A program made the position numbers and the translations under genes. From Candidatus Altimarinota bacterium (GTDB taxonomy: Bacteria; Patescibacteriota; Gracilibacteria; GCA-2401425; JAJOLG01), in assembly GCA_021129445.1 (NCBI GenBank), contig JAJOLG010000007.1:1-9174 (forward strand): a stretch of 9,174 nucleotides of DNA, in the 5' to 3' direction. This document shows, piece by piece, positions 8,068-9,174 of the stretch. The notes under the pieces were generated by a model. The model saw only the letters and a list, made by a program, of their open reading frames with translations. It was not told the DNA's origin and ran no database searches. Position 1 is the stretch's first letter, and each line of letters begins with the position of its first letter.

Positions 8068-8156
8068 ATTTTATTATTTTTTTTCTAATTTAATTAAAAA
8101 AATTTTTGTAATCAAGAAAAAAATTTTTTTAATGGTAAAAAAATTTTAATGTAATT
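8068..8156. promoter_or_regulatory. Divergent intergenic region between gatC and the MazF-like gene
   Basis: These 89 nt of A/T-rich DNA with repeated A-run/T-run blocks should hold the promoters for both divergent genes. I see no convincing -35/-10 pair and no operator-like palindrome. A toxin gene in an autoregulated TA operon would usually have one. Confidence 0.35.
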
Positions 8157-8175
8157 ATGGAAAAAAATTATTCAC
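8152..8175 (+). repeat. Direct repeat, left copy (start region of the MazF-like gene)
   Basis: These 24 nt are identical to 8781-8804. They include 5 nt of leader, the ATG and the codons for MEKNYS. Similarity continues more weakly for about 30 nt into both genes. Confidence 0.85.
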
Positions 8176-8681
8176 AAAAAAAATTTGAAGAAAAATTTCT
8201 CTTATTTAAAATAAATTTTTTTGAATTATTTAATATTAAAGATAAAAAAAATATTTTTAATTTTTTAAATTGGTTTAATGATAAAATCATCATAAATTTT
8301 AATAAAAATACACCTAATTTAAAATTAAAAAAATGAGAAATTTATTTTATAAATTTATGAATAAATATATGAAGTGAGTTAAATAAACAAAGACCTTGTC
8401 TTATTTTCAGTGATTGGTTTTTTAATAATTGAAAAACAGTTGTTATTATTCCATTAAAATCGTATGAATGAAAAAAATACAATAAAAATATAAATATTTT
8501 TATAAAAAAAAGTAAAATTAATAATTTAAAAGAAAATTCAATGGCTGATTTATCTTGAATTAGACAAGTTTCAAAAAAGAGAATATGATTATTTATTTGA
8601 AATATTGAAGAATGAGATTTATTAAAAATAAATAAAAAATTAACAAAATTTTTATGACTAAAAAAACAAACAGTAAATTAA
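8157..8681 (+). CDS. MazF/PemK-like toxin (probable endoribonuclease)
   Basis: This encodes 174 aa. Residues about 58-168 match the MazF/PemK fold: KKGEIYFINLGINIGSEL, then QRPCLIFSDWFFNNGKTVVI with the conserved Arg-Pro (R79-P80), IPLKS at 98-102, MADLSGIRQVSKKRIG at 129-144 and IGNIEEGDLLKINKKL near the end. MazF-type toxins cut mRNA or tRNA in single-stranded regions; activity here is inferred. A 57-residue N-terminal extension precedes the core. It has a Phe/Asn-rich helix (NIFNFLNWFNDKI), reminiscent of extended PemK proteins seen in CPR genomes, and its first 15 residues copy the start of valS. No antitoxin-sized gene adjoins it. Seven or more conserved Gly are TGA, so the gene is adapted to this code and is not a very recent arrival from a standard-code host. 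Confidence 0.8.
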
Positions 8682-8691
8682 ATTTACTGTT
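8669..8691 (+). terminator. Hairpin over the toxin gene stop codon
   Basis: A 9-bp inverted repeat (8669-8677 with 8683-8691, AACAGTAAA/TTTACTGTT) with a 5-nt loop spans the TAA at 8679-8681. The T tract after it is short (GTTT), so it may be a weak terminator or an mRNA 3' end stabiliser, leaving read-through into valS possible. Confidence 0.45.
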
Positions 8692-8696
8692 GTTTA

Positions 8697-8783
8697 ATGA
8701 AATCTCTTAAACGAGTCCATGCAAGCTTAATTAGCTTAAGTATTAAAATACTAATCACAATTTTAAAAAAGTCAACAATATAA
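8697..8783 (+). CDS. Possible 28-aa small ORF upstream of valS
   Basis: An ATG at 8697 opens a 28-codon frame (begins MKSLKRVHASLISLSIKIL, rich in Leu/Ile/Ser/Lys) ending at TAA 8781-8783, two bases before the valS ATG. It contains no TGA. It fills the gap between the toxin gene and valS and overlaps two hairpins. It could be a leader peptide, a tiny membrane-associated protein or a chance frame. It has only one Val codon, so classical valine attenuation is not supported. No homology is recognised. Confidence 0.22.
   Translation: MKSLKRVHASLISLSIKILITILKKSTI
8723..8752 (+). other. Two tandem small hairpins in the valS leader
   Basis: Stem one is AAGCT/AGCTT (8723-8727 with 8733-8737). Stem two is AGTAT/ATACT (8739-8743 with 8748-8752). 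They are adjacent and 33 nt before the valS start. Neither is followed by a T tract. No T-box consensus is present. They may be chance or a leader structure. Confidence 0.3.
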
Positions 8784-8804
8784 TTATGGAAAAAAATTAT
8801 TCAC
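8781..8804 (+). repeat. Direct repeat, right copy (start region of valS)
   Basis: Identical to 8152-8175, with a repeat period of 629 nt. The copies bracket the toxin gene and the small ORF/hairpin region. See the left copy. Confidence 0.85.
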
Positions 8805-9174
8805 CAAAAAATTTCGAAAAAAATATCTCTAAAAAATGGGAGGAGAGAAAAATTTTTTCTTGCCCAAAAAAATTTGATTCAAAAAAATGAACTCATATCA
8901 ACATAATGCCACCGCCAAATGCTAATTGAAACCTGCATCTTGGGCATGCATCTGGTGAAACAATTATGGATATCGCTTGAAGATATGCAAAAATGAATGG
9001 TAAAGATACTTTTTTATTGCCATGAAAAGACCATGCTGGGATTATGACACAGGTGATTTATGAGAAATTTTTAGCTGAAAAGTGAATTGATAAAGAAAAA
9101 ATGTCGAGAGATGAACTTTTTGAATGATGTTATAAATTTTGTGAAGAAAATTCTGGAAAAATGAGAAATCAGGA
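8786..9174 (+). CDS. valS: Valyl-tRNA synthetase, N-terminal part (runs off the window)
   Basis: The first 129 residues of a class I aminoacyl-tRNA synthetase that charges tRNA(Val). Motifs: KKWEERKIF at 16-24, the ValRS block MPPPNANGNLHLGHA at 41-55 containing the HIGH signature as HLGH (51-54), IMDIAGRYAKMNGKDTFLLP at 60-79 and GKDHAGIMTQ at 80-89. DHAGI.TQ is characteristic of ValRS rather than Ile/LeuRS. The family usually has PNVTG and GTDHAGIATQ; Ala-Asn and Lys replace Val-Thr and Thr here. Gly48, Gly65, Gly80, Gly100 and Gly114 are TGA while Gly53, Gly57 and Gly72 are GGN, which clearly shows TGA as glycine. ATG at 8786 lies two bases after the small ORF stop. The KMSKS part lies beyond the window. 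Confidence 0.95.

What the first reader, a model, noticed from the sequence alone, without database searches (positions are those of the whole stretch)
8152..8804. The 5' end of valS is duplicated in front of a MazF-like toxin gene
24 identical nt (8152-8175 and 8781-8804), including leader, ATG and six codons, begin both genes. Similarity then decays over about 30 nt (the proteins begin MEKNYSQKKFEEKF and MEKNYSPKNFEKNI). A duplicated start region would leave valS intact while a toxin cassette sits in front of it and borrows its translation start. Integration at a gene 5' end with regeneration of the target, or a tandem duplication in which the first copy was overwritten by a toxin domain, would both give this. 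I know of no described toxin that captured the start of an essential tRNA synthetase.
Basis: partly seen in the sequence, partly recalled or inferred. Interest (0 to 1): 0.72.

Follow-up and report, generated by a model that had tools for sequence, protein, structure and literature searches.

The report
Toxin gene wearing valS's first codons
In an uncultivated bacterium that reads the codon TGA as glycine, a MazF-like RNA-cutting toxin gene, together with a predicted small RNA gene facing it, sits in front of the essential gene valS and begins with a copied piece of valS's own start, so the toxin seems to have taken over the start signal of an essential gene while leaving that gene whole.

Summary
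The 24-nt identity (8152-8175, 8781-8804) is the core of a 47-nt block, 89% identical (8148-8194, 8777-8823); the 24-mer is found nowhere else in the genome even with 3 mismatches. The downstream gene is a genuine valS; the upstream one is a PemK/MazF toxin. Ten related toxins all start exactly eight residues later, so MEKNYSQK is an added, valS-derived prefix, and the old toxin start codon is now AAA. No other valS locus examined has the toxin beside it. The same RNA type follows most related toxins in TGA-recoded genomes, with compensated hairpins, but also some HsdM and KilA-N genes. Best reading: a toxin/sRNA module landed in the valS start and left a short duplication; the toxin uses the old valS start and valS the regenerated one. 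Insertion is inferred: no close relative with an empty site is held. Whether the sRNA is an antitoxin is untested; it would be the more novel part.

The parts
8148..8194 (+). Repeat copy 1: leader, ATG and first codons of the toxin (24-nt identical core 8152-8175)
   Evidence: 89% identical to 8777-8823 over 47 nt; 24-mer unique to these two places in the genome at 3 mismatches
8777..8823 (+). Repeat copy 2: leader, ATG and first codons of valS (identical core 8781-8804)
   Evidence: gapped extension to 8830
8157..8681 (+). N-extended PemK/MazF-like toxin, 174 aa, ten in-frame TGA read as Gly
   Evidence: Pfam PF02452 E 5e-20, residues 58-166; PDB MazF/PemK matches
8157..8180 (+). Eight valS-derived codons (MEKNYSQK) added in front of the toxin
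   Evidence: ten relatives have 50 residues before KG[ED] and 30 before the conserved W; this toxin 58 and 38
8181..8183 (+). Place of the toxin family's own start codon, now AAA (Lys9)
   Evidence: alignment of toxin N-termini
8664..8695 (.). Hairpin over the toxin stop codon, with T-rich flanks on both strands: predicted shared terminator
   Evidence: fold -10.6 kcal/mol, z -4.1; corresponding hairpins behind related toxins
8748..8775 (-). Predicted promoter of the small RNA: TTGACT (8775-8770), 16 nt, TAGTAT (8753-8748)
   Evidence: same spacing and following ACT in 14 aligned loci
8660..8742 (-). Predicted convergent small RNA, 5'-UACU, hairpins about 8738-8722 and 8720-8697, then the shared terminator
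   Evidence: close to the RNA behind the G089 toxin
8786..9174 (+). valS, 5' part (contig ends inside the gene)
   Evidence: NCBIfam valine--tRNA ligase E 8e-35; class valS share the YxPKxFE start

Best explanation
A small module, an N-extended MazF-like endoribonuclease gene plus a convergent structured small RNA gene, was inserted at the 5' end of valS, and about 24-47 bp of that end now flank it on both sides. Upstream, the old valS leader, ATG and first eight codons are fused in frame to the toxin at its former start codon, so the toxin is translated from the valS start. Downstream, a second copy provides a complete valS start right behind the small RNA promoter. Shown: the duplication, the prefix of eight residues, the toxin and its predicted small RNA between the copies. 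Inferred: that one insertion caused the duplication, that copy 1 is the older one, that valS now depends on read-through or a weak new promoter, that the toxin is active, that the small RNA is made, and that it restrains the toxin, more likely by binding the protein than by antisense pairing.
For: Repeat unique and far beyond background. YSPKNFEK is the ordinary valS N-terminus, while ten related toxins start exactly at the place of Lys9, so the direction of copying is valS to toxin. No toxin beside 30 other valS loci. Right border: the small RNA's -35 box ends at 8775, the second repeat begins at 8777. Left border: the repeat runs into the toxin's former start codon. Both borders of the module meet the repeat. 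The RNA gene recurs behind related toxins. Elements in the 5' ends of dusA and prfC are a precedent for an insertion that supplies a new start (PMC8409611, PMC4482086).
Against: No empty site is available. The module carries no integrase or transposase, and a 24-47 bp duplication is long for common transposases (own knowledge). The two copies differ at 5 of 47 sites, so the event is not fresh or the repeat was never perfect. The small RNA is predicted only; the window's copy scores weakly with the model made from others (19.8 bits, E 0.11 in the window; no genome-wide hit), and the RNA type also accompanies HsdM and KilA-N genes.
Confidence: 0.62

Rival explanations
1. The 5' end of valS was first tandemly duplicated, or copied by template switching, and the toxin/sRNA module later recombined into the first copy through short A-rich homology near the two start codons.
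For: Toxin codons 9-13 (AAA TTT GAA GAA AAA) resemble both valS codons 9-13 and native toxin starts such as MFDKK, so short homology for a join existed. No recombinase gene lies in the module. The similarity is imperfect beyond the 24-mer.
Against: Needs two events, and nothing of the duplicated valS beyond about codon 13-16 remains; the second border falls directly beside the small RNA promoter.
Confidence: 0.25
2. The shared start is kept because it works: a common translation or decay signal (for example a site cut by the toxin, or bound by an RNA) ties toxin and valS together, whatever its origin.
For: The identical core lies exactly over the ribosome entry region while flanks have drifted: all differences inside the coding part fall after the 24-mer.
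Against: The predicted small RNA has no special complementarity to either start; ACA, the E. coli MazF site (own knowledge), is present in the toxin copy but not in the valS copy. No related locus shows such pairing of starts.
Confidence: 0.08
3. Chance likeness of two A-rich gene starts, or an assembly artefact.
For: The genome is 75% AT and gene starts are A-rich; the window is one draft contig that ends inside valS.
Against: Far outside the distribution of 10,878 gene-start pairs; imperfect similarity extends on both sides of the identical core, which a k-mer misjoin would not give.
Confidence: 0.03

Closest known systems
Integrative elements in the 5' end of dusA, and ICE SXT in prfC (PMC8409611, PMC4482086)
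   Same: Foreign DNA at the 5' end of a translation-related gene, semi-conserved direct repeats at both ends, target gene left with a complete start
   Different: Those elements are large and carry an integrase, and supply a changed N-terminus to the target. Here the piece is about 0.6 kb without integrase, and the old start is fused in frame to a toxin
PemK/MazF toxins of type II systems
   Same: Toxin domain, above the Pfam cut-off; R79 and S102 align with the conserved Arg and the Thr position of MazF (alignment; residue roles from own knowledge)
   Different: 50-residue N-terminal extension, no protein antitoxin gene beside it, predicted small RNA instead
Type III toxin-antitoxin systems (ToxIN, CptIN, TenpIN)
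   Same: Type III toxins are endoribonucleases of MazF-like fold neutralised by a structured RNA (PMC5086642)
   Different: Type III antitoxin RNA lies upstream in the same transcript, is repeated and pseudoknotted; here it is a single-copy RNA on the opposite strand behind the toxin with its own promoter
par locus of pAD1 (Fst, RNAI/RNAII; type I)
   Same: Toxin gene and small RNA converge on a shared bidirectional terminator (PMC8167048)
   Different: Fst is a small toxic peptide controlled by antisense pairing through repeats. Here the toxin is a MazF-like RNase and no such complementarity was found

Membership tests
PemK/MazF toxin family (PF02452) | Match above the curated cut-off over the full domain | tested here: met
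   72.2 bits against cut-off 23.1, profile 1-109 of 109
PemK/MazF toxin family (PF02452) | Sequence-specific endoribonuclease activity | not testable with these tools
   needs protein work
Type II toxin-antitoxin module | Protein antitoxin gene adjacent to the toxin | tested here: not met
   Neighbours are a divergent GatC-like gene and valS; no small same-strand ORF between
Type III toxin-antitoxin system | Structured RNA gene beside an endoribonuclease-fold toxin | tested here: met
   Predicted RNA gene with conserved promoter pattern and compensated hairpins
Type III toxin-antitoxin system | Antitoxin RNA upstream of the toxin on the same strand, as repeats | tested here: not met
   RNA is downstream, opposite strand, single copy
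Type III toxin-antitoxin system | RNA binds and neutralises the toxin | not testable with these tools
   needs binding and rescue tests
Type I toxin-antitoxin system (par-like) | Convergent RNA with shared terminator | tested here: met
Type I toxin-antitoxin system (par-like) | RNA complementary to the toxin mRNA start or translation region | tested here: not met
   duplex energies no better than shuffles (138/200 as good); only the terminator and 3' end overlap
Site-specific integrative element at a gene 5' end | Flanking direct repeats that restore the target gene | tested here: met
Site-specific integrative element at a gene 5' end | Integrase or transposase gene inside | tested here: not met
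   Only toxin and predicted RNA gene between the repeats
Site-specific integrative element at a gene 5' end | Empty site with one copy in close relatives | not testable with these tools
   Only one genome of the family and two of the order are held; genome contigs gave no close relative

The most novel reading that the evidence does not exclude
N-extended MazF-like RNases of TGA-recoded Gracilibacteria and relatives form, with a convergent single-copy structured small RNA sharing their terminator, a new layout of RNA-controlled toxin-antitoxin module (type III-like in partners, par-like in layout). The RNA family also accompanies other defence-type genes (HsdM, KilA-N), and one such module has hijacked the start of valS.
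Probability: 0.4. Interest if true: 0.82.

Novelty: new variant of a known kind. Interest (0 to 1): 0.64.

Why it matters
If right, it shows a toxin module that entered an essential gene without breaking it and took its translation start, which would tie toxin expression to that of a tRNA synthetase. The conserved small RNA offers a testable answer to how these toxins, which have no protein antitoxin beside them, are held in check, and may add a new layout to the RNA-controlled toxin-antitoxin systems. No Rfam family matches it, and no paper found in the searches made describes a MazF/PemK toxin paired with such an RNA (open-licence papers only).

Tried and rejected
Other copies of the 8140-8810 stretch in the genome: only AT-rich background, and no second toxin. 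Genome-contig search for close valS relatives: one distant hit only. Toxin in viral contigs, phages and plasmids: none, none, and two distant plasmid MazF. PADLOC: no match. Structure prediction without an alignment failed (pLDDT 38), so no fold search was made. The repeat-flanked toxin in G122 looked like a second case, but its repeats are a dispersed family with 35 matches in that genome. Integron attC sites were considered for the conserved hairpins and set aside without a formal test: fixed promoter-to-RNA spacing and a terminator speak for a transcribed gene. An exclusive sRNA-MazF pairing was rejected, since HsdM and KilA-N genes have the RNA too. The automatic alignment of the second hairpin was poor, so stem variation was counted per folded sequence, not on alignment columns.

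Full report
Setting. The window is the whole of contig 32 of a 673-kb draft genome. TGA is read as glycine: valS has TGA at G48 in the PPPNANG stretch, and the toxin reads through ten TGA codons. The genome's family holds one member and its order two in the held set, while its class holds 353 genomes, several lineages of which have TGA inside the same genes.

The observation. The sequence shows TAATTATGGAAAAAAATTATTCAC at 8152-8175 and 8781-8804. It is the centre of a block of 47 nt with five differences (8148-8194 / 8777-8823), extendable to 55 nt with a one-base gap. The pattern occurs nowhere else in the genome at up to three mismatches. In a sample of 148 ATG gene starts, 10,878 pairs gave at most an 18-nt run across ATG; the only pair near 39/44 identity was a tandem pair with a shared nucleotide-binding motif in L103. 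Common descent of the two starts is therefore nearly certain.

Which gene owned it. The downstream gene is valS. Valyl-tRNA synthetases of the class begin with forms such as MEFPKQYTPKNFEKNLAQRWEQ, so ...YSPKNFEKNISKKWEE is the normal valS beginning. The upstream gene is an N-extended PemK/MazF toxin. Its ten nearest relatives used here, in other TGA-recoded genomes, all have exactly 50 residues before the KG[ED] motif and 30 before a conserved W; the window toxin has 58 and 38. Residue 9, Lys (AAA), stands where the relatives have Met. The prefix MEKNYSQK is therefore extra and valS-derived. Codons 9-13 fit both valS and native toxin starts, so the junction cannot be placed more closely than about codons 7 to 13.

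Uniqueness. None of the other valS loci examined (up to 1.5 kb upstream) has the toxin. Around the other toxin loci no repeat like this one joins the toxin start to the downstream side; the one exception, G122, has copies of a dispersed repeat on both sides.

What lies between the copies. The toxin's stop codon lies in a hairpin with T-rich flanks on both strands. Behind it, on the opposite strand, relatives show a promoter-like TTGNNN-N16/17-TATAAT, then about six bases, then ACT, two hairpins, and the shared terminator hairpin. In 14 aligned loci TTG, the TA and T of the -10 box, and ACT are invariant and the promoter part aligns without gaps. Both hairpins form in all 14, and most stem positions show three or four pair types. 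A second subtype has ACUUAGAUGUAG in place of the first hairpin. The promoter-ACT pattern is present behind 22 of 32 N-extended toxins on the expected strand and 0 on the other, 0 of 18 plain MazF genes, 0 of 213 other ORFs in the sampled part of the window's genome and 2 of 57 in relatives. This count is partly circular because the pattern came from some of these loci.

Genome-wide searches with two covariance models. Model R1 gave 17 hits in 353 genomes, 12 of them beside toxins listed; seven of those twelve were in the model, so five of ten independent hits are toxin neighbours. Model R2 gave 15 hits at E up to 2.2e-4, ten beside such toxins (two of them, G023 and G144, independent of the model), two beside HsdM-like genes, one beside a KilA-N gene, one near a DUF3800 gene and one unassigned. 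In G122 a KilA-N reading frame ends in a toxin-like tail before the RNA. The RNA family is thus tied mainly, not only, to these toxins. No Rfam family matches.

The window's own RNA. R1's best match in the window is at 8775-8687 on the minus strand, 19.8 bits, E 0.11; it did not pass the genome-wide search, so by itself it is a weak match. Directly aligned, however, the window RNA and its terminator are close to the RNA behind the G089:C184 toxin, one of the two nearest toxins. Predicted elements: -35 TTGACT 8775-8770, -10 TAGTAT 8753-8748, RNA about 8742 to 8660. The module ends within two bases of the second repeat (8777), and its other end is the toxin's former start. Both borders coincide with the repeat, which is what an insertion with duplication or regeneration of the target would leave.

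Mechanism, graded. Shown by sequence: duplication; valS-derived prefix on the toxin; a toxin plus a predicted RNA gene between the copies. Inferred: one insertion event; copy 1 is the old valS start; the toxin now uses the valS start; valS, with ten bases between the small RNA's -35 box and its start codon, needs read-through or a weak promoter (no plus-strand promoter-like site was listed between the toxin stop and valS). Function of the RNA: a structured RNA beside a MazF-type toxin without a protein antitoxin suggests neutralisation, as in type III systems, whose toxins share the MazF fold (PMC5086642); the convergent layout with a shared terminator recalls the par locus (PMC8167048). Lack of special complementarity and varying but paired stems favour protein binding over antisense pairing. 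This is untested, and the HsdM and KilA-N neighbours argue for a wider role.

Precedent and difference. [quoted passage not shown]). What is unusual here is the other half: the old start is fused in frame to a toxin, and the inserted piece is only about 0.6 kb with no integrase.

Verdict. Observation confirmed. The small RNA partner is the more novel part and the best next target.

Noticed in passing
L174:1501-1602 (G108), L036:1983-2078 (G116), L175:1501-1595 (G022), L170:1501-1606 (G105): The second small RNA subtype also sits convergent with HsdM-like methylases, a KilA-N gene and near a DUF3800 gene, so it may mark defence-type cassettes in general.
   Followed up: partly
L036 (G116:C1:837480-838266), L084 (G113:C32), L077 (G121:C42:1827-4015): Small RNA copies occur in series within 0.7-2.1 kb (in G116: HsdM, RNA, MazF-like toxin, RNA), as if gene-RNA units were stacked in arrays.
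   Followed up: partly
L160 (G122:C19:20723-23819): A KilA-N reading frame ends in a MazF-toxin-like C-terminal tail directly before the small RNA, perhaps a replaced toxin gene.
   Followed up: no
L022:1240-1971 and other G122 contigs: A toxin that lacks its N-terminal extension lies between copies of a dispersed, partly palindromic repeat with 35 matches in that genome.
   Followed up: partly
L090:1755-4001 (G078) and L021:1504-3420 (G102): Two other MazF-like toxins lie upstream of an isoleucyl-tRNA-synthetase-like gene (directly in G078, with one ORF between in G102), without a copied start.
   Followed up: partly
L080 and L081 (G047:C11:7402 and 14247): Two toxin copies with the same score and the same 3' flank 6.8 kb apart in one contig.
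   Followed up: no
window:8157-8681: The toxin gene is far richer in AT (86%) than its flanks (72%), as are its relatives.
   Followed up: no
L103:3120-5029: Tandem pair of P-loop genes (MRIAF..GKGG..KTT) in the window's genome, the only other sampled pair of gene starts as alike as toxin and valS.
   Followed up: no
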